Virus record (IMG/VR): IMGVR_UViG_3300035182_000300
Location: 1 to 25,261 of that record
Strand: one strand, 5' to 3'
Source of the DNA: a virus
Length of the DNA: 25,261 nucleotides
Notes under the pieces: generated by a model
What the model saw: the letters and a program-made list of their open reading frames with translations, nothing else
Told to the model about the DNA's origin: nothing
The model's database searches: none
Translations under genes and position numbers: made by a program
Shown here: piece after piece, positions 6,957 to 23,030 of the stretch
Layout: each line of letters opens with the position of its first letter
Position numbering within the stretch: position 1 is the first letter of the stretch

Positions 6957-8264
6957 ATGGCAGGCACACTCACTCCCACGCCCTTTCAGACCGTCCTGGA
7001 CGACACCGGGGTTGCGTCTCCGGCTGCGCTGATCTACACCTACACCGCTGGGACGACCACGGCTGCGGCGACATACACCACCTCAGCCCTATCTGTGGCG
7101 AATGCCAACCCGATTGTTGCGGACAGCGCGGGAAGATTTGTGGCGTATCTGGCGGCGGGCGCGAACATGAAGTTCGTGTACAAGACGGCAGCGGGGGCCA
7201 CGATTCGGACGCAGGACAACGTGCTGTCGGTGCCTGGCGCAGCAGTCAACCTCGACATCCAGGGGACTGTGGGCGTGGCGGTGACGGCGGGACAGGTCTG
7301 TTATTTGTCGTCTGGCGCGGAAGCAACACCGTTGACGCCCGGCCTGTGGTATCTGACCGATGCCGACTTTGCGGTCAGCAGCACGACCTGCCAGTCGATT
7401 GGCGTGGCGGTCTCGGCTATCCCTATCAACACGGCGGGGACGATTCGGATTGCGGGTCTGGCGACGACGGCAGCGGCGGTGGTGGTGGGCAGCACGTATT
7501 ACGTGTCGGCCACGGCGGGGGCGATTACGACGACGGCTCCGGCGTTTGCGCGTGTCGTGGGTGTGGCGGATACCACGTCCACATTGCTCCTTGCGGCTAC
7601 GTCTGCGGTCATTGCAAGTTTGCCCAACCCCATCTTGCAAGACCTGCTGTTTACCGACGCGACGTACGACATTGGCAAGTCTGGCGCGAGTCGGCCCCGT
7701 GACCTGTTCCAGTCGAGGAACGCCACGATTGGCGGCACGTTGGGCGTCACGGGTGCGACCACGTTGTCCTCGACTGTTGCCACAGGTGCGTTGACCGTCA
7801 CCGGGGCGGCGACCGTCTCCACGACCCTTGGTGTGACGGGTGCCACCACCCTGTCTTCGACGGTCGGTACTGGAGCGTTGACGGTCACTGGCAATGAGAC
7901 GGTATCGGGCACACTGGGCGTCACGGGTGCCACGTCGTTATCGAGCGCAACGGTGTCCACGACGCTGGGCGTGACGGGCGCGGCGACGTTGTCCTCGACG
8001 CTAACGGTGACCGGTGTCACGACCCTCACGGGCGGGTTGAACACGCCGCTCACGGTCCCGAATGGCGGCACGGGTGTGGCGACACGAACCGCCTACGGCG
8101 TGATTGTCGGCGGCACCACGTCTACTGGGGCTGAGCAAACGATTGTTCCTGGCACGTCTGGGTATGTGCTGACTTCGGGTGGAGCCTCGGCGGTGCCGAC
8201 GTGGGCGGCATCAGTGACTGGCGATTCTGACCAGATTGTTCTCGGTGTGCAGGTCTTCTCGTAA
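6957..8264 (+). CDS. Tail fibre protein with repeated LGVTGATTLSS units (435 aa)
   Basis: The N-terminal 90 residues (FQTVLDDTGVASPAALIYTY, later ADSAGRFVAYL) match the type of N-terminal domain seen on many phage tail fibres that attach to the tail. Residues about 255-360 form a repetitive beta shaft: five copies of a (T)LGVTGAxxLSS unit alternate with LTVTG and TVS units, on a roughly 20-residue pattern. The shaft is followed by NGGTGVATRTAYGVIVGGTT, a knob-proximal motif common in fibres. There is no obvious chaperone or pectate-lyase domain after it, so receptor binding may involve the following small proteins. The gene is GC-rich (63% in a 60-base sample) next to AT-richer genes on both sides, consistent with module exchange. 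Confidence 0.85.
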   Translation: MAGTLTPTPFQTVLDDTGVASPAALIYTYTAGTTTAAATYTTSALSVANANPIVADSAGRFVAYLAAGANMKFVYKTAAGATIRTQDNVLSVPGAAVNLDIQGTVGVAVTAGQVCYLSSGAEATPLTPGLWYLTDADFAVSSTTCQSIGVAVSAIPINTAGTIRIAGLATTAAAVVVGSTYYVSATAGAITTTAPAFARVVGVADTTSTLLLAATSAVIASLPNPILQDLLFTDATYDIGKSGASRPRDLFQSRNATIGGTLGVTGATTLSSTVATGALTVTGAATVSTTLGVTGATTLSSTVGTGALTVTGNETVSGTLGVTGATSLSSATVSTTLGVTGAATLSSTLTVTGVTTLTGGLNTPLTVPNGGTGVATRTAYGVIVGGTTSTGAEQTIVPGTSGYVLTSGGASAVPTWAASVTGDSDQIVLGVQVFS

Positions 8265-11362: not shown

Positions 11363-11909
11363 AGCTATAGACTTCAGTCTGCCGTGCCAGCCCGTGCGGG
11401 AAGGCCAGTGGGCCGGTGAAGCTCTTGTCCTCGTAGACCACCCGGTCAGTCGGCTGGATGGTCAGTCGCCCATTCTCTAGCTCGATGAAGTGGAACTCCT
11501 TGGCCTGTTCAGGCACAGCGGAGAACCCATCTCCAATAGGCGCAATAGAGAACAGGTGTTGCCCCGGCAACTGCTGCGCTCCCGCCTTGGCGAGGCACCG
11601 TAACCCTGACAGATACGGATACTCCAGCGCCGAGAAGTCGGTGCCGTAACAGTCCCACATCTGCGCGTCCGTCACGCTCCACGGCTCCTCTGAATGCATC
11701 GAGAACGCTATCGCATGAGGGGGCAGTGAGCGAAACACCGCTCCTGTTTCAAGCATGAGGGTGCAGCCCCACATCCGGCCCGGTGTGCTGGTCAGGCCAA
11801 ACCAGACGGCGGGCTGATAGCGCGGTCCTTGTATCACTCGATGTGTAAACGTCGTGTCCACGTAGACGTAGAGGTGCCTCGGTAATGGGCCGATGAGGGA
11901 ATGGATCAC
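11355..11909 (-). CDS. Conserved phage protein of unknown function (184 aa)
   Basis: This leftward gene starts with GTG at 11907-11909, overlapping the VRR-NUC stop as GTGA. The sequence contains LYVYVDTTFTHRVIQGPRY, then PAVWFGLTSTPGRMWGCTLM, then YRSLPPHAIAF-like FRSLPPHAIAFSM and later DCYGTDFSALEYPYLSGL. I recognise this arrangement from uncharacterised phage proteins only. It is a soluble mixed alpha/beta protein with no signal peptide or membrane segment. It is the last gene of the leftward operon and converges on the lysis genes. No function should be inferred beyond probable co-expression with DNA-metabolism genes. Confidence 0.7.
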   Translation of the reverse strand: MIHSLIGPLPRHLYVYVDTTFTHRVIQGPRYQPAVWFGLTSTPGRMWGCTLMLETGAVFRSLPPHAIAFSMHSEEPWSVTDAQMWDCYGTDFSALEYPYLSGLRCLAKAGAQQLPGQHLFSIAPIGDGFSAVPEQAKEFHFIELENGRLTIQPTDRVVYEDKSFTGPLAFPHGLARQTEVYSCE

Positions 11910-12190
11910 AACGCCAGTGCTTCCTTAAGGCTGGTCACGACCTGCACCGTCACCCCGGCCGACGCCATGAGCGCGTGGAACTGCACCTCGTCTTCCGTCA
12001 ACTTCTGCGCGGACGGCACTTTCGCGCCGTCCTTGATTTCGACCAATACCAGCCGACCTCGCTTGGCAATCAGCAGGTCGGGGAATCCTGACCCCACGCC
12101 AGCGCAGTCCACGACCACCCAGTGTGCTGCCCTGAGGGCTGACCGAATTTCGGCGTGATTCGCATCAACTCGGGCACGTCGTCTCACCAT
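11906..12190 (-). CDS. VRR-NUC domain nuclease (94 aa)
   Basis: This is a compact PD-(D/E)xK fold nuclease covering essentially one VRR-NUC domain. GVGSGFPDLL (residues 31-40) supplies the metal-binding Asp38. LVEIKDG (49-55) supplies Glu51 and Lys53. EDEVQFHALMASAGVTVQVV gives the conserved Gln/His helix and last strand. Stand-alone phage VRR-NUC proteins are predicted to cut branched or structured DNA and act in repair, recombination or packaging. The ATG at 12190 lies only 29 bases downstream, in transcription sense, of the pentamer array. Any transcript from the recombination operon must therefore carry the array in the leader of this gene. The stop overlaps the next start. Confidence 0.85.
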   Translation of the reverse strand: MVRRRARVDANHAEIRSALRAAHWVVVDCAGVGSGFPDLLIAKRGRLVLVEIKDGAKVPSAQKLTEDEVQFHALMASAGVTVQVVTSLKEALAL

Positions 12191-12219: not shown

Positions 12220-12923
12220 TTGCCTCGTTCCTCGCCCTGCCCAGCCGTGCCATGCCCGGCCCGGACTTGCCTAGCCTCGCCTCGTTCCTCGCCATGCCAC
12301 GCCCAGCCCCGCCGAGCCGGGCCACGTTCCTTGCCTTACCCCGCCGTGCCACGCCCTGCCTAGCCAAGCCACGCCCCGCCCTGCCGGACCTCGTTCCTTG
12401 CCTCGCCATGCCGAGCCTGGCCCCGCCGTGCCCCGCCTTGCCGAGCCACGCCCAGCCAAGCCAGGCCCCGCCGAGCCGTACCTTGCCGCGTTCCTCGCCT
12501 TGCCACGCCGTGCCGCGCCACGCCTTGCCCTGCCTTGTTCCGCGCCCTGCCTCGCCCTGCCGCGCCGAGCCAAGCCCGGTTCCTCGCCTTACCGCGCCGA
12601 GCCGCGCCAAGCCTAGCCGCGCCACGCCCAGCCATGCCCAGCCCCGCCCCGTTCCTTGCCGCGCCTCGCCCTGCCGCGCCGCGCCCCGCCACGCCTAGCC
12701 TCGCCTCGTTCCTCACCTCGCCTTGCCTAGCCAAGCCACGCCCCGCCCTACCGGACCTCGTTCCTCGCCTCGCCCAGCCGCGCCATACCCGGCCACGCCT
12801 AGCCCCGCCTAGCCGCGTTCCTCGCCTCGCCCAGCCACGCCATGCCCTGCCCGGCCTTGCCGCGCCCTGCCGCGTTCCTTGCCTTACCCCGCCTGGCCCC
12901 GCCACGCCTTGCCAGGCCCTGCC
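12220..12923. repeat. Degenerate NNGCC pentamer array punctuated by twelve NNGTTCC heptamers
   Basis: The whole stretch parses without gaps into pentamers NNGCC (nine are NNACC, one is CGGAC) and heptamers NNGTTCC. There are about 124 pentamers and twelve heptamers. Heptamers begin at 12225, 12282, 12324, 12391, 12488, 12535, 12577, 12649, 12706, 12758, 12815 and 12872. Their spacings are 57, 42, 67, 97, 47, 42, 72, 57, 52, 57 and 57, all equal to 7 plus a multiple of 5. All 16 NN dinucleotides occur. Eleven of twelve heptamers are followed by TC or TT. On the leftward mRNA this reads GGCNN repeats with RAGGAAC punctuations. The array begins 12 bases after the stop of the winged-helix-like gene and ends 29 bases before the VRR-NUC start. 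It is not coding: spacings do not keep one frame, and the 5-base period leaves almost only TAG as a possible stop in any frame. Confidence 0.95.
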
Positions 12924-12935
12924 CTGCGCCTTGCG

Positions 12936-13412
12936 TCAGGACGGGGTGGGTGTCCCCACGGCCAACGGCAACACCGGATGCGTCGTCCGCGCTTGCAGCC
13001 GGGCCGACTGAATCACCGTTGTCGCCACCCGCTGCACATGCTCCGCTTGCTGCCGCTCTTCTACCGACAGCCGCGTCCAATCCGTACTCGTCGCCACGGC
13101 ATGGGCACGACGGAAACTCCGCACCCCCATCCGCAACTTCGTCGCACTGAGGTCTACCCGTTCGCCGGGGGCGAGGGCGACATACGCCCCCTCCCCTGCC
13201 CGCAGATAGATATTGTGTTCCCGCACCAGCCGATTGCGCCACGCCGTGGTCACCGTGCGAAACCGCGACATGACGGGACTCACCTGAATCACCTCCGACA
13301 CCTCGGTATACGTCATCTTGACCCCCTCCGCTGGCACCCCAAAGGCCGCGAACAGCCGATGGACATCTGCTTCGGTGGGAATCCCAGACGCGAACAGCGG
13401 GGACTTCGTCAT
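12936..13412 (-). CDS. Winged-helix-like conserved phage protein (158 aa)
   Basis: I take the ATG at 13410-13412, which overlaps the stop of the upstream gene as ATGA; an open extension to 13583 lies wholly inside that gene. Residues about 12-75 (PTEADVHRLFAAFGVPAEGV, then MTYTEVSEVIQVSP and later TAWRNRLVREHNIYL) look like a helix-turn-helix followed by a wing ending in YVALAPGERV. The C-terminal half is basic and helical (TKLRMGVRSFRRAHAVAT). I recognise this combination as a frequent uncharacterised phage protein that often neighbours the 224-residue protein found just upstream here. DNA binding is inferred. The pentamer array begins right after its stop. Confidence 0.7.
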   Translation of the reverse strand: MTKSPLFASGIPTEADVHRLFAAFGVPAEGVKMTYTEVSEVIQVSPVMSRFRTVTTAWRNRLVREHNIYLRAGEGAYVALAPGERVDLSATKLRMGVRSFRRAHAVATSTDWTRLSVEERQQAEHVQRVATTVIQSARLQARTTHPVLPLAVGTPTPS

Positions 13413-14083
13413 CGCTGCACCTTCACCGTGGCGCGGAACCGACCCCACGGCCCCGGCTTGCTCGGGCTGGAGGGACGCCAATCGCCCAACCCGCAATACG
13501 TCCCGGCCATCTCCAGAATCAGCGCGAGAATCTCGCCCGTGATGGTTTCGTCCACCACGGTGATGCTGCCGCTCACGCTCCACGCATTGAACCGGGGACG
13601 CACACGAATGTGCTTGGACATGCCGACCTTCGCGGCCTTCGCAAACAACTCAAAGCCCAACCCCTCGGCGGTGGACTCATGCACGGCGTAATCCTTCTCC
13701 TCGATCAACGCCGACAGCGCGGGCCAGGACACCGGTTTGCCGTCAGCCGTGAGCAGGGGCCACAGCATCTGATCGACGATCAGGCCCGACTGGGACTGCC
13801 GTTTATACGTTGCGCCCTTCTTGCCGGTCGGCACACGCGCTCCACCCTCGCGCAGCAGCGTCATCAGGTTGTCGGCAGGCATCCCGAGGCGCACTCCGTC
13901 GTGGTAGCAGTAGCCCAGCCATTTCCAGGCCGGGGTGCGGTCATCGCCCGCCTTGCTCAGGCGCTTGTTCTCGGGATTCGCCAGCCAGCGGTCAAGTTCT
14001 GACCGCCATTTCAGGTCATCGGCGTGCATCAGGAGCGGGGATTCGCCGGTCAAGGTCACGTCGTACTTCGTCATTAAACTCAC
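13409..14083 (-). CDS. Conserved phage protein of unknown function, possible RAMP-like fold (224 aa)
   Basis: The GTG at 14081-14083 has AAGGAG five bases upstream and overlaps the previous stop (GTGA), so it is preferred over the ATG at 14074. The N-terminus (KYDVTLTGESPLLMHADDL) followed by a Lys/Ser/Asp segment (KRLSKAGDDRTPAWKWLGY) is shared by a widespread phage family. The middle has SKHIRVRPRFNAWSVSGSI, and the end has CGLGDWRPSSPSKPGPWGRF. The strand-turn pattern 'TLTGxSPLLMH' and the Gly-rich end remind me of Cas7/RAMP-type RNA-binding proteins, a weak hunch without structural support. It lies in the recombination/replication operon beside a winged-helix-like partner. Confidence 0.7.
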   Translation of the reverse strand: MSLMTKYDVTLTGESPLLMHADDLKWRSELDRWLANPENKRLSKAGDDRTPAWKWLGYCYHDGVRLGMPADNLMTLLREGGARVPTGKKGATYKRQSQSGLIVDQMLWPLLTADGKPVSWPALSALIEEKDYAVHESTAEGLGFELFAKAAKVGMSKHIRVRPRFNAWSVSGSITVVDETITGEILALILEMAGTYCGLGDWRPSSPSKPGPWGRFRATVKVQR

Positions 14084-14217
14084 AAACTCTCCTTTGCGGG
14101 TGGTGGTGGAAAACTCGTCGCGCAGACATTACAGAGATAGGTCCAGGTCGTGCCGGTGACGACCCGCTCGATCAGGCGGTCCTCGCCGCACTTGGGACAC
14201 CGGATCTCATCCGGCAT
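14080..14217 (-). CDS. Small zinc-ribbon protein (45 aa)
   Basis: This short frame begins with ATG at 14215-14217, 11 bases inside the methyltransferase gene, and its TGA overlaps the next GTG start. Two CxxC knuckles (CPKCG at residues 7-11, CNVCA at 29-33) are about 18 residues apart, with Thr-Trp-Thr-Tyr before the second. This is a classical zinc ribbon. The rest is Pro-rich (FPPPPAKESL). Zinc ribbons of this size in phages usually bind nucleic acid or adapt polymerase subunits, but no specific role can be assigned. Tight overlaps on both sides support a real coupled gene. Confidence 0.75.
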   Translation of the reverse strand: MPDEIRCPKCGEDRLIERVVTGTTWTYLCNVCATSFPPPPAKESL

Positions 14218-14686
14218 GAGTCGGCCTGAAGATCACGAGCATTGAGGGAAACGGCGCACTGCCCGTCCCGTCGCCAAACTTCAACCGGCCTCGAACGAAC
14301 CGGACTTCGACGTGCGGACGTGGCGAGTTCGTCGTGACGTCCCAGACGTGGTCATGGAACCACCGGGTGTCCGTCCGACTGGGCACCAAACACACGACGG
14401 TGCAGCCGTCCGCCGCTTCCGCCTGGGCCTTCTGCATAAACAGCCGCACCTTGGAATACGGCGGATTCAGCCAGACCACGGGCGGTCGGATCCGCTGCGG
14501 GGGGACGCGCCGCCACCGCGCCTGTAACGCATCCTCCGCCTGCGTCACAAACGCGGGGCAGCACGCATTATCTGCCGTCGCCGCCGCATCGAGGCTGAAG
14601 CTGAACTCGGCATCGAGGGCGTCATACAGATCGCGGGGCGTCGTCCACTCGTCAGACGTGCGACTAAACAGGACCGGGTAGGTCAT
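14207..14686 (-). CDS. dam: Phage DNA N6-adenine methyltransferase (159 aa)
   Basis: The product carries the family pattern of phage DNA N-6-adenine-methyltransferases (Dam, PF05869). EWTTPRDLYDALDAEF is followed by SLDAAATADN near residues 31-40. The catalytic motif IV NPPY lies at residues 74-77 within VVWLNPPYSKV. CLVPSRTDTRWFHDHV and a C-terminal RFVRGRLKFGDG segment follow. It transfers a methyl group from S-adenosylmethionine to adenine, probably protecting phage DNA or timing replication and packaging. GGGAG precedes the ATG by four bases. It sits in the replication operon between a zinc-binding helicase-loader-like gene and a small zinc ribbon. No cognate restriction enzyme is seen, so it is likely a solitary methylase. 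Confidence 0.9.
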   Translation of the reverse strand: MTYPVLFSRTSDEWTTPRDLYDALDAEFSFSLDAAATADNACCPAFVTQAEDALQARWRRVPPQRIRPPVVWLNPPYSKVRLFMQKAQAEAADGCTVVCLVPSRTDTRWFHDHVWDVTTNSPRPHVEVRFVRGRLKFGDGTGSAPFPSMLVIFRPTHAG

Positions 14687-14701
14687 ACCACTCCCTTCGT
14701 C

Positions 14702-15238
14702 TCACCATGTTTTGGCGTGCGCCGTTTTCGCCACGGCGTATTGCACCACCGCCGCCCGTTTCCGTACGAGCGCCGGATTACTGTCGTAACACGGGCAGTG
14801 TTCGACCCATTCGTGGGCGTCATGATCGCGGTGCAATCCACACGGCGCGGCACGGTGCCACGGCTTACGGTGCGTCTCGACCCCGCACCACCACGAGCGC
14901 CATCCACTATCGGAGCAGTGTTCGCAGTAGTAGACCCACTCCCGCTCAATACGCACCCTCGCCGTGGTCTGTGGCACCTCCACGACGTACGGCCTCTCCA
15001 GTCGCACCGACCGGTCCTCTTCTTCCATGAGGACACGGATGCGCCCCATGTCCGCGTCCTGCCGCAACTCATGCGGGGTGGGAAAATCCACGCGGGTGCG
15101 CCCGGCGACGGTGACCGCAGCGGTCAACGCCTCGTCTGGCATCTCGCGCAGCGCCTCCCAGTGCGTCGTCAGGTCACCGGGCACAAATTTCAACCCGACC
15201 AGCCGCGCCATCTGGGCGTAGAAAAACGATTCGGTCAT
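14702..15238 (-). CDS. Replication-associated protein with Cys/His zinc-binding tail (178 aa)
   Basis: The ATG at 15236-15238 overlaps the upstream stop (ATGA); the open extension to 15382 overlies the upstream gene. Residues 1-65 (FFYAQMARLVGLKF, then HWEALREMPDEALTAAV and FPTPHELRQDAD) match a helical domain common in phage proteins next to replication genes, probably loader-like. Residues 100-150 hold Cys105, Cys108, Cys118, Cys133, Cys148 and Cys150 plus several His, forming one or two zinc sites. Its position directly after the DnaT/O-like protein suggests a joint role in loading the host helicase. This is inferred from layout and general resemblance. Confidence 0.65.
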   Translation of the reverse strand: MTESFFYAQMARLVGLKFVPGDLTTHWEALREMPDEALTAAVTVAGRTRVDFPTPHELRQDADMGRIRVLMEEEDRSVRLERPYVVEVPQTTARVRIEREWVYYCEHCSDSGWRSWWCGVETHRKPWHRAAPCGLHRDHDAHEWVEHCPCYDSNPALVRKRAAVVQYAVAKTAHAKTW

Positions 15239-15585
15239 CGCTTGGCCTTGATGGCGGTCTGCGCCCAGGCGGGGAGGCGTGAATGGACCGGCGTCTCGGG
15301 ACGATCCGGCTCGTCGGTCCAGCGTTCGCCCCGCAGGTAGGACGCCGGGAGCGGCGTATACATCACGGGTCTGGTGGCCCATTCCTCAGTTTGCCAGACC
15401 AAGGCCGTAAGGATCTCGGCGTGGAGTGCTGCTGTGGGGCGCAGGTCCGTCCACGCCTTCCACGCATCCTTCTTGTGCTTGCGCCGGGGATACGCCGCCC
15501 AGAAGGCGGCGAATCCGGCATCCAGCGTCGTTACCACAGGGGAATCTGCGTCAGGGGTGTCCCATAGCACCAGTGTGCAGCCCAT
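15235..15585 (-). CDS. Replication protein/helicase-loader C-terminal-like (116 aa)
   Basis: A strong GAGGAGG site seven bases before the ATG fixes the start at 15583-15585, inside the 3' end of the preceding 56-residue gene. Residues 22-95 contain DAGFAAFWAAYPRRKHKKDA, then WTDLRPTAALHAEIL, ALVWQTEEWATRP and YTPLPASYLRGERWTDE. This arrangement is the typical C-terminal domain of phage replication initiators and DnaT-like helicase loaders (FxxFWxxYPRK...P.P..WL....W.DE). Here it stands almost alone, without the usual N-terminal winged-helix origin-binding domain. DNA binding may therefore come from another subunit. Its stop is coupled to the zinc-tail protein. Confidence 0.7.
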   Translation of the reverse strand: MGCTLVLWDTPDADSPVVTTLDAGFAAFWAAYPRRKHKKDAWKAWTDLRPTAALHAEILTALVWQTEEWATRPVMYTPLPASYLRGERWTDEPDRPETPVHSRLPAWAQTAIKAKR

Positions 15586-15701
15586 CGTTCGGCCTCCTCG
15601 CGGGTCATCCCCGCCTCAAACTCCAAAATCGCAGCGCGTTCCTCATACTGATCGCGCTGGGCCAGTGTCGGGACCGGTGGCAGCGGTGGCCGCACGGTCA
15701 T
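15531..15701 (-). CDS. Small conserved-looking phage protein (56 aa)
   Basis: A frame from ATG at 15699-15701 to TAA at 15531-15533 encodes a Pro-rich N-terminus, then a charged amphipathic helix (RDQYEERAAILEFEAGMTRE, then EAERWAAHW), and ends TPLTQIPLW. The motif 'YEERAAILEF-GMTREEAERWA' resembles a segment I know from many short phage and plasmid proteins of unknown function found in replication modules. It overlaps the gene before it and, by 55 bases, the gene after it; the latter's ribosome site lies within it. The codons give a sensible protein only in this frame, which is why I call it. Confidence 0.65.
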   Translation of the reverse strand: MTVRPPLPPVPTLAQRDQYEERAAILEFEAGMTREEAERWAAHWCYGTPLTQIPLW

Positions 15702-15885
15702 TGCAAGCCGGTGCCTCGTCCATACGGGGCTTGGTCGTCATCGGCCATGTCCACGTCACCCCGTGGAATTCGACGCGGTCCCCGAGGCCATGTTGACGTA
15801 TCCAGTGGCGGGAGACGGTGCCCAGCGCAGCGAGGGACGGCTGATGTGCGCCCGGTGACGCGGGACCACGCCCCCACCACCGCAT
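15643..15885 (-). CDS. Possible small hypothetical protein (80 aa)
   Basis: The ATG at 15883-15885 overlaps the stop of the SSB-tail protein gene (TAATG), arguing for coupled translation. Residues about 19-48 look protein-like (LAALGTVSRHWIRQHGLGD, then RVEFHGVTWTWP), but the remainder is low in pattern and overlaps the 56-residue gene by 59 bases. A competing frame at 15698-15910 ends in a perfect ATGA overlap with the 56-residue gene but has a less plausible composition. I cannot decide firmly, and only one of the two is likely expressed. Confidence 0.4.
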   Translation of the reverse strand: MRWWGRGPASPGAHQPSLAALGTVSRHWIRQHGLGDRVEFHGVTWTWPMTTKPRMDEAPACNDRAATAATGPDTGPARSV

Positions 15886-16148
15886 TAAAAAGGAATCTCA
15901 GGAAGGTCATGGGCCGGTCCTGTCTTGGGCTTCGCCACCCAGGTATCTAACGTGACGCTGTGCGTGTCCCCAAACTTACCAAGCTCACGCCGAGACTGAA
16001 CGCACAGGTTCAGGTATCCCCGCTCGTTGGCGTGGCGCTGGGCGAACTCCAGCAAGTCGGCCACTTTGATGCCGAGGTTCAGAATGCTGCCCCCACTCGC
16101 AAACGTCTTCTCTTTCGCGGAACACTTCAGGAAAATCTTCTCAGCCAT
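15885..16148 (-). CDS. Small recombination-module protein with SSB-like C-terminal tip (87 aa)
   Basis: The ATG follows the exonuclease stop directly (TAAATG). The body has KIFLKCSAKEKTFASGG, then SILNLGIKVADLLEFAQ, then GYLNLCVQSRRE and GDTHSVTLDTW. It looks like a small beta-barrel-like conserved phage protein of unknown name. The last seven residues are DLPEIPF, closely resembling the acidic DDIPF tip by which bacterial SSB recruits partner enzymes. Because it follows ERF and YqaJ genes, I infer a single-strand-binding or partner-docking role. It is shorter than standard SSB, and I do not see the usual OB-fold aromatic pattern clearly. Confidence 0.7.
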   Translation of the reverse strand: MAEKIFLKCSAKEKTFASGGSILNLGIKVADLLEFAQRHANERGYLNLCVQSRRELGKFGDTHSVTLDTWVAKPKTGPAHDLPEIPF

Positions 16149-16808
16149 TTACTGCACTCCTTGGCGCGTCAGCGCCTCTGTCTGAAACGCCGACAGCGTC
16201 TCAATGTCTTCCTGTACTTCCGCGAGAAACGTCTCCACGGCGGTCTGATGCGCGGCCATCAGCGCCTCGTCCCGGTCCTGCCGCACGACCCATAACTGCA
16301 ACCCGACAGGGAGGCGGTCATCGAACGACACAAAGTCGATATACCCGTACTCCGGCCCGGCGACCCACAGACTATGCGTCAACTGCGCCTGATACGTCGG
16401 CGGGATACCGCCCGCCTTGAGATACCCCACATGCACCTTCGTGGTCGGGCACTTCACCTCCACGAGGCCACGCTGCCCGTGCAACCCCTCCACGACCCCG
16501 TCAGGGCTACAACCCGCCGCGCAGGACTCGGACTCCATGAACCCGACCCGGCCCACCACCGCGCCCGTGAGCGCCTCGTAGGCCCGGATGGCGTCCGCTT
16601 CCTTGTCGATGCCCCGCTGGACGGCGTCGTTCGGTGTAAACGGAGCCTCGCAGGACAGGCCAGTGAGACGTTCACAAGCCAATTGCATCCGCAAATCGGC
16701 CCGTTGGGCCGAGAAGCCGGTCTTAATTGTCGCCAGCATAGCCTTGGCCGCAGACGCCGTCAGTTTGCCGACCCGGATCTGGTGCCACTCCGGGGTGCGT
16801 TGGTCCAT
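16149..16808 (-). CDS. YqaJ-family viral recombinase/exonuclease (219 aa)
   Basis: I choose the ATG at 16806-16808, which gives MDQRTPEWHQIRVGKLTASA, the standard start of this family. A frame extension to 16925 overlaps the ERF gene. Motifs follow in order: RGIDKE (65-70), GCSPDGVV (99-106, Asp103), VEVKCP (116-121, Glu117 and Lys119) and TYQAQLTHSLWV (138-149). This is the lambda-exonuclease-type PD-(D/E)xK nuclease that resects double-stranded DNA 5' to 3', leaving 3' tails for the annealing protein. It lies 11 bases after the ERF stop, forming the usual two-component recombination pair. Confidence 0.92.
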   Translation of the reverse strand: MDQRTPEWHQIRVGKLTASAAKAMLATIKTGFSAQRADLRMQLACERLTGLSCEAPFTPNDAVQRGIDKEADAIRAYEALTGAVVGRVGFMESESCAAGCSPDGVVEGLHGQRGLVEVKCPTTKVHVGYLKAGGIPPTYQAQLTHSLWVAGPEYGYIDFVSFDDRLPVGLQLWVVRQDRDEALMAAHQTAVETFLAEVQEDIETLSAFQTEALTRQGVQ

Positions 16809-16819
16809 GAGGTGCAGGA

Positions 16820-17407
16820 TCACTTCGTCCCCTGCATGCCCTTGGCTCGGGCCTTCAGGTCCGTCCAGACCTGTTCGTGGTGCGTGGTCAGGTGCGACCG
16901 GAACGTGGCCGAGGACGCCGTCCACGCCGCCTTCAATGCCGCTTCGCCGGTGTCGGCCACCGCCGTCATGTCATCGAGCCACGCCTCAAAGCCGGGAGGC
17001 GCGACCACCACCGGCACATGCGACTGGGCACTCTCGGCGTCGTCATCGACCGGTGCGACCGAGGCAATGGCACACAACCCCGCCCGGCGCAGGTAGGTGA
17101 CGATGCTGATGAGCGCCTGTGGCGAGGAGTCCTTCGCCGTGGCGGTCATGACGCCGGACATCCACTGCCCGGAACTGTGCAGCAGGACCGTCTCCAGCGA
17201 CACCGTCGCGCCCGTGGCGCTGGGATGCTGCACGATGGACAGGCCGTTGCGGGTGAGCGGTTCGCGGACTGCCGACCAGCACGACGCCAGGTCAGAGTAT
17301 TTGCTCTTAAAGAAGGGGTTATCGCTGTTGCGGTGTGCCCCGGCGATATCGGCCTGTGCCTTCGCCAGTGCCGTGGCGAGTTCTCCGAGTTCGGGTGATG
17401 CGTTCAT
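16820..17407 (-). CDS. erf: ERF-family single-strand annealing protein (195 aa)
   Basis: The signature PFFKSKYSDLASCWSAVREP with LTRNGLSIVQ lies at residues 31-60. PQALISIVTYLRRAGLCAIA followed by DDDAES lies at about 96-126, where the ERF family has TYxRRYxL...G and DDDG. ERF proteins form rings on single-stranded DNA and anneal homologous strands during phage recombination and genome circularisation. The C-terminal 60 residues are more variable and helical. Its start overlaps the upstream stop (ATGA), and the exonuclease gene follows, so both are made together. Length is normal for the family. Confidence 0.92.
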   Translation of the reverse strand: MNASPELGELATALAKAQADIAGAHRNSDNPFFKSKYSDLASCWSAVREPLTRNGLSIVQHPSATGATVSLETVLLHSSGQWMSGVMTATAKDSSPQALISIVTYLRRAGLCAIASVAPVDDDAESAQSHVPVVVAPPGFEAWLDDMTAVADTGEAALKAAWTASSATFRSHLTTHHEQVWTDLKARAKGMQGTK

Positions 17408-22668: not shown

Positions 22669-22919
22669 CGGAATAATGAGGGTATCTGAAAATAGGGCGT
22701 CTCACCTAGCGTTCTGTCTGATTAGTTAGTAGGGTTCTGTACGCCCCGCAGGGCGACGATCTCCGGCCTTCCCATACCCTACTATCCCCCTCCACCCTCA
22801 CGCCTTATAAGTCATCCTAGCGACACCTTCGCCTATCCTTCTCTCTTTCGCTGTACCTTCGTACGTACGTACGTACGCCTTCTCTTCGCCTTACGCCTTC
22901 TCTTCGCTTAACCACCACC
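22669..22919. other. Pyrimidine-rich non-coding stretch with simple and direct repeats
   Basis: There is no convincing gene. It holds a hairpin CGCCC-N4-GGGCG near 22743-22756, a strongly pyrimidine-rich plus strand from about 22760 to 22910, a (CGTA) tetranucleotide run at about 22860-22877, and a 16-base direct repeat TACGCCTTCTCTTCGC at 22874-22889 and 22892-22907. It adjoins the inverted-repeat iterons and is a plausible part of a replication origin. Confidence 0.55.
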
Positions 22920-23030
22920 GTCAATATCTTGACACCCACCGTCAATCTTTTGACGCACCGTCAATCTATTGACACTGTCCCCTTTCAGGTACACCGTCAA
23001 TTCTTTGACGCCTACCGTCAAGATCGTGAC
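22920..23030. repeat. Five GTCAA-N4-TTGAC inverted-repeat iterons
   Basis: Sites start at 22920, 22941, 22960, 22996 and 23017, and each is 14 bases. Four are perfect inverted repeats with a 4-base centre, and the fifth has CGTGAC on its right arm. All are preceded by ACC and followed by AC or GC, so the fuller unit is ACCGTCAA-N4-TTGAC-R-C. Spacings are 21, 19, 36 and 21 bases. These look like binding sites for a dimeric DNA-binding protein: a replication initiator or a repressor. Confidence 0.85.

What the first reader, a model, noticed from the sequence alone, without database searches (positions are those of the whole stretch)
12220..12923. A 704-base array of NNGCC pentamers with strictly phased NNGTTCC heptamers
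Every base belongs to a pentamer (NNGCC, sometimes NNACC) or one of twelve heptamers. All eleven heptamer intervals (57, 42, 67, 97, 47, 42, 72, 57, 52, 57, 57) equal 7 plus 5n, so there are no frame slips of the 5-base register in about 700 bases. The fixed GCC with a freely varying NN (all 16 dinucleotides occur) is unlike a normal tandem repeat, where drift affects all positions. Something conserves the GCC register while tolerating or generating NN diversity. The array fills the space between two tightly packed leftward genes. I know of no described element with this design.
Basis: seen in the sequence. Interest (0 to 1): 0.9.

Follow-up and report, generated by a model that had tools for sequence, protein, structure and literature searches.

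The report
Phage guide-RNA array (VIPR system)
The strange 704-base repeat is the guide-RNA array of a VIPR system, a newly described phage weapon related to CRISPR in which the variable letter pairs between fixed GGC/GGT triplets spell out a gapped DNA target; the kind is known since 2026, but this compact array is a new example.

Summary
In detail: 12220-12923 is a slip-free chain of 123 NNGCC-type pentamers and 12 NNGTTCC heptamers. Read on the strand of the surrounding genes it is GGY-NN repeated, in blocks separated by GGAAC-NN. It is not a microsatellite. In cellular genomes the same pattern mostly finds ordinary repeats with 1-5 NN types; in viral contigs it finds arrays with mostly 5-16. 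Of 150 loci with such arrays, 116 encode one uncharacterised protein family (phrog_4652), and 202 of 203 arrays near it lie on its strand. The window's member (13409-14083) is predicted with high confidence and matches Cas7/Csm3 RAMP subunits of type III and VII CRISPR complexes. A second gene (12936-13412, phrog_5926) overlaps it by ATGA. The same two genes plus array occur in E. coli phage phiSUSP1, where a 2026 preprint (PMC13142463) showed that Vipr protein and GGY/NN vrRNAs bind DNA by a one-nucleotide-skip code and repress rival phages. So this is a VIPR locus: a new member of a just-described kind. Unlike phiSUSP1, its blocks abut with only a short GGCRA-GGAAC boundary and no structured tail. 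The preprint's staggered arrays may be the same; I could not read that supplement. Natural targets were not established.

The parts
12220..12923 (-). vrRNA (guide) array: 123 GGYNN units in blocks separated by twelve GGAAC-NN heptamers; sense strand is minus
   Evidence: same-strand rule 202:1 near vipr genes
12331..12390 (-). One guide block (NN: CC AG GG GT TT TA AG GT AC GG AA AA), first seven units nearly shared with L134 and L142
12713..12757 (-). Second copy of the same guide start (NN: CC AG GG GT TT TA AA GA GA), diverged at its 3' end
12391..12397 (-). Example of a heptamer boundary, GGAAC-GA in sense; the unit before it is nearly always GGCRA (the other eleven start at 12225, 12282, 12324, 12488, 12535, 12577, 12649, 12706, 12758, 12815, 12872)
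12936..13412 (-). vap-like accessory gene (phrog_5926 family); ATG overlaps the vipr stop codon as ATGA; predicted helical protein with a winged-helix-like N-terminal half
13409..14083 (-). vipr gene: phrog_4652 family, Cas7/Csm3-like RAMP protein (GTG start 14083 with AGGAG upstream, or ATG at 14074)

Best explanation
The array is the guide-RNA array of a phage VIPR (Viral Interference Programmable Repeat) system made of vipr (13409-14083), vap (12936-13412) and about a dozen guide blocks in 12220-12923. Shown here: the register, the orientation, the gene association, the predicted Cas7-like fold, homology of both genes to those of phage phiSUSP1, and block-wise replacement of guides between near-identical phages of the phiSUSP1 group. 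Inferred from the published system: the minus strand is transcribed with the operon; each RNA block is bound by several Vipr subunits, one per GGYNN; GGY is held by the protein; NN pairs with double-stranded DNA, two bases paired and one skipped; binding represses genes of competing phages or prophages. Inferred and specific to this clade: the recurring GGCRA-GGAAC-RN element is the boundary between successive guides and takes the place of the structured tail seen between guides in phiSUSP1.
For: Pattern and phase. phrog_4652 HMM in 116 of 150 loci with diverse arrays, 79 of 117 hits within 100 bp and 105 within 500 bp, against 2 of 115 cellular loci with ordinary repeats (cellular arrays). 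GGYNN on the vipr strand in 202 of 203 arrays within 2 kb. AlphaFold2 pLDDT 96.3, pTM 0.90; Foldseek top hits and the VIA list dominated by Cas7/Csm3-type subunits, best Z 11.5 over 161-163 residues at 3.4-3.6 A. Window Vipr to phiSUSP1 Vipr: BLASTP E 2e-18, 27% identity, shared RPxFxxW and GxGDWRP...GRF motifs; the window-headed family alignment to the near-identical SUSP2 protein: hhalign probability 99.9, E 5e-33. vap family to phiSUSP1 vap: hhalign probability 97.2, E 4e-11. phiSUSP1 shows one GGYNN tract upstream and three downstream, as the preprint reports for its four vrRNAs. In Felixounavirus/SUSP-type phages with 95-98% identical vipr-vap, most guide blocks are no more alike than shuffled ones, while a few are shared exactly.
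Against: No natural target was established: of five decoded window guides scanned exactly against IMG/VR, three gave one hit each, consistent with chance or unproven; a decoded shared Felixounavirus guide, used as a positive control, also found nothing, so the scan has little power. A search of all decoded guides against the fetched loci showed no excess for the one-base skip. No structured tail lies between blocks, unlike phiSUSP1. Transcription was not measured. The source is one preprint.
Confidence: 0.93

Rival explanations
1. The array is a regulatory RNA of the phage's own operon, bound by a ring or filament protein as TRAP binds NAG triplets with two-base spacers, and controls expression of the neighbouring genes rather than guiding to foreign DNA.
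For: Five-base period with triplet plus two free bases; sense orientation within an early operon; starts just behind an upstream stop codon in many loci.
Against: The associated protein has a predicted Cas7 fold; guide blocks turn over between near-identical phages while genes do not, unexpected of a cis-regulatory site; the homologous phiSUSP1 system was shown to be RNA-guided.
Confidence: 0.04
2. Vipr and array form an RNP, but in this clade it serves as a decoy or inhibitor, for example against host type III CRISPR complexes, instead of as a DNA-targeting effector.
For: Cas7-like fold; compact array without tails; no clear targets found.
Against: NN diversity and cassette-like blocks fit guides; the vap gene is kept; no CRISPR-repeat-like element is seen.
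Confidence: 0.025
3. Ordinary hypermutable pentanucleotide satellite or assembly artefact.
For: 57-base higher-order duplications.
Against: Identical array on a second contig, cultured phages, high NN diversity in viral contigs against cellular VNTRs, tight linkage to one gene family on one strand.
Confidence: 0.005

Closest known systems
VIPR system of Escherichia phage phiSUSP1 (PMC13142463)
   Same: Homologous vipr and vap in the same order, GGY/NN repeat tracts next to the genes on the same strand, tracts of roughly similar unit number.
   Different: In phiSUSP1 the downstream tracts are separated by about 70-100 bases that include a structured tail, and the triplets are mostly GGT; in the window the triplets are mostly GGC and about a dozen blocks are joined directly with only a short GGCRA-GGAAC boundary.
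VIPR staggered arrays with overlapping vrRNAs (preprint fig. S18)
   Same: Named in the preprint as another array architecture; possibly the same as the window.
   Different: Could not be compared: the supplement was not readable here.
Class 1 CRISPR-Cas Cas7/Csm3 (types III, VII)
   Same: Fold of the backbone subunit; multiple guide units in an array.
   Different: No cas genes, no CRISPR repeats and spacers; five-base period with GGY in the guide itself; pairing is not contiguous in the published VIPR mechanism.
TRAP-binding RNA sites (from general knowledge)
   Same: Triplets spaced by two variable bases.
   Different: Different triplet; associated protein has a Cas7-like fold; far longer and hypervariable arrays.

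Membership tests
VIPR | RAMP-homologous Vipr protein next to the array | tested here: met
   AF2 model and PDB comparison to Cas7/Csm3; homology to the SUSP2/phiSUSP1 protein
VIPR | RNA tract of alternating GGY and variable NN | tested here: met
   (sequence level); phiSUSP1 tracts for comparison
VIPR | Small locus with a vap accessory gene | tested here: met
   phrog_5926 gene overlapping vipr by ATGA; hhalign to phiSUSP1 vap probability 97.2
VIPR | vap of this type is a predicted DNA-binding protein | tested here: inconclusive
   AF2 model pLDDT 90.7; PDB matches include winged-helix regulators but none with E below 0.01
VIPR | 9-16 repeats per vrRNA | tested here: inconclusive
   Blocks between heptamers hold 7-18 pentamers in the window and mostly 7-13, mode 11, over 60 clade blocks; true RNA ends unknown
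VIPR | NN positions match natural targets with a one-base skip | tested here: inconclusive
VIPR | RNA is expressed and co-purifies with Vipr | not testable with these tools
   needs small-RNA sequencing and pull-down
VIPR type II array as in phiSUSP1 | Each repeat tract followed by an invariable structured 3' tail | tested here: not met
   Blocks abut; only GGCRA-GGAAC-NN between them; tails present in phiSUSP1. The preprint says array architecture varies between VIPR types, so this bears on the sub-type, not on VIPR membership.
CRISPR-Cas | CRISPR repeat-spacer array with cas genes | tested here: not met
   No cas family among the neighbouring genes scanned; array is five-base periodic
Pentanucleotide microsatellite | Few unit types, drift at all positions | tested here: not met
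   16 NN types with nearly fixed GGY; cellular satellites mostly have 1-5 types

The most novel reading that the evidence does not exclude
A compact VIPR variant in which about a dozen guides are strung together without structured tails, punctuated only by a seven-base phase break within GGCRA-GGAAC-RN. This would mean that guide ends are set by a ten-base signal, or by the Vipr filament restarting at the phase break, and that other clades use other breaks (for example the GGCA tetramer in Cheoctovirus mycobacteriophages).
Probability: 0.4. Interest if true: 0.6.

Novelty: new member of a known kind. Interest (0 to 1): 0.55.

Why it matters
VIPR is a freshly described RNA-guided system with a non-contiguous code, proposed as older than CRISPR. 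An analysis that started from raw sequence and met the preprint only at the end reached the same GGY-NN motif, the same protein family and the same RAMP fold, which supports the preprint's core genomic claims independently. It also adds a clade with tail-less, GGAAC-punctuated arrays and well-studied mycobacteriophages (Cheoctovirus) as carriers, in which guide ends, phase breaks and targets can be tested in laboratory hosts.

Tried and rejected
Microsatellite or artefact: rejected. Protein-coding repeat: TA units that give TAG are present 7 times in 123, and no single listed ORF covers the array. The TA shortfall across arrays (0.61 of expectation) may reflect general CTAG avoidance, so it was not taken as coding selection. 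TRAP-like regulation and a G-quadruplex array were considered before the fold was known and dropped; neither was tested beyond that. RNA folding of the whole array gave z -6.6 over 20 shuffles, not used because a periodic repeat makes the shuffles a poor control. Rfam: no hits. Target search: decoded blocks against fetched loci no better than shuffled or other skip lengths; IMG/VR exact scans gave single hits L276 (T4-like phage gene, skip at codon position 1), L277 (start region of an exonuclease-like gene) and L278 (tape measure gene, skip at wobble positions), but other guides do not clearly converge on those records. The family 'fam0' was inflated by single linkage with an unrelated FEWDD-containing family; the HMM counts replace it. 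First gene-orientation counts were crude and are replaced.

Full report
Observation. The array is real and exact. parse 12220-12923 as 123 pentamers and 12 heptamers without a slip; shuffled sequence never exceeds five consecutive units. The same array, letter for letter, is on a separately recovered contig of the same virus.

Orientation and anatomy. The genes around the array run leftward. On their strand the array reads GGY-NN, with the heptamer as GGAAC-NN. Most blocks end in GGCRA before GGAAC; over 103 boundaries from 24 loci the base before GGAAC is A in 74% and the one before that a purine in 87% (GGAAC itself was required by that search). Blocks between boundaries hold mostly 7-13 units, mode 11.

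Distribution. In these arrays NN is diverse. Cultured phages with arrays include Cheoctovirus mycobacteriophages, Felixounavirus and SUSP phages, Pseudomonas LESphi2, Mycobacterium LittleE and Gordonia MakoManhole.

Gene association. One family, phrog_4652 of unknown function, is encoded in 116 of 150 loci with diverse arrays, usually within 500 bases; some of the other loci are cut by contig ends. Of 203 arrays within 2 kb of such a gene, 202 have GGYNN on its strand. The association was found from arrays and holds in reverse: tblastn with the window protein led to Felixounavirus, LESphi2, LittleE and MakoManhole, and each of the four representatives examined has GGYNN tracts in the gaps beside the gene. 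The partner phrog_5926 follows phrog_4652 in all four.

Fold. The window protein is predicted at pLDDT 96.3. Foldseek and VIA-align return Cas7/Csm3-type subunits of type VII and type III CRISPR complexes at the top, best Z 11.5 over about 160 of 221 residues. The partner protein is predicted as helical with a winged-helix-like N-terminal part; no solved structure matches it convincingly.

Identification. A literature search on these features returned the preprint PMC13142463: VIPR systems consist of a RAMP-like Vipr, a vap gene and vrRNAs of GGY/NN repeats; NN pairs with double-stranded DNA with one base skipped; targets are competing phages. The main experimental system is phage SUSP1. I fetched phiSUSP1: its locus has one tract upstream and three downstream of the two genes, its Vipr is homologous to the window's and its vap to the window's partner gene. 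The window is therefore a VIPR locus.

Evolution. Among nine Felixounavirus/SUSP phages whose vipr-vap genes are 95-98% identical to the reference, most blocks match no better than shuffled ones, while a few are shared exactly. Blocks appear to be gained and lost as units, as expected of guides. In the window's clade one guide start (CC AG GG GT TT TA A, with small variations) recurs in three phages and twice in the window.

What differs. phiSUSP1 tracts are separated by structured tails; the window's blocks are not. The preprint mentions staggered arrays with overlapping vrRNAs in a supplement that could not be read, so I do not claim this architecture as new.

What is not shown. Expression, RNA ends, binding and targets of this particular array. 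Target scans were underpowered and inconclusive.

Noticed in passing
window 11906-12190 (-): Small nuclease-like gene (phrog_93 endonuclease and phrog_5702 Holliday junction resolvase matches) starting 30 bases beyond the array; a homolog lies in L036. Not conserved next to other arrays, so not counted as part of the system.
   Followed up: partly
window 14207-17407 (-): Leftward early genes: Dam methyltransferase, replication-initiation-like protein, YqaJ-type exonuclease and Erf-type annealing protein.
   Followed up: partly
window 22915-22975: Three copies of a repeat of about 19 bases (consensus CCACCGTCAATCTATTGACAC) in a region of strong GC skew; possible operator or origin.
   Followed up: no
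window 7733-7933: 87-base repeats inside the ORF 6957-8264, encoding repeated V-T-G-A-T-T-L-S segments, perhaps a tail fibre.
   Followed up: no
L274 2486-3648: In Mycobacterium phage LittleE the two genes lie in reverse orientation between tail genes, as if inserted as a cassette.
   Followed up: partly
L275 2970-3140: In Gordonia phage MakoManhole the tracts alternate with elements resembling a tRNA T arm (GGTTCGACTCC); no tRNA gene is predicted.
   Followed up: no
L003-L006, about 2490-2830: Cheoctovirus arrays show no GGAAC heptamer but GGCA tetramer phase breaks; other loci show other breaks, so break type looks clade-specific.
   Followed up: partly
L100, L104, L106, L117, L224: A second recurrent neighbour family with an FEWDD motif near vipr-like genes or arrays, possibly another accessory protein.
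   Followed up: no
L278 2384-2409: The only IMG/VR match to the decoded window block at 12656-12705 (nine units): a prophage tape measure gene with every skipped base at the wobble position. May be chance.
   Followed up: partly
Felixounavirus records: About 104 of 230 matching records carry most of the locus; many of the rest keep only repeat or flank pieces, suggesting frequent gain or loss.
   Followed up: no
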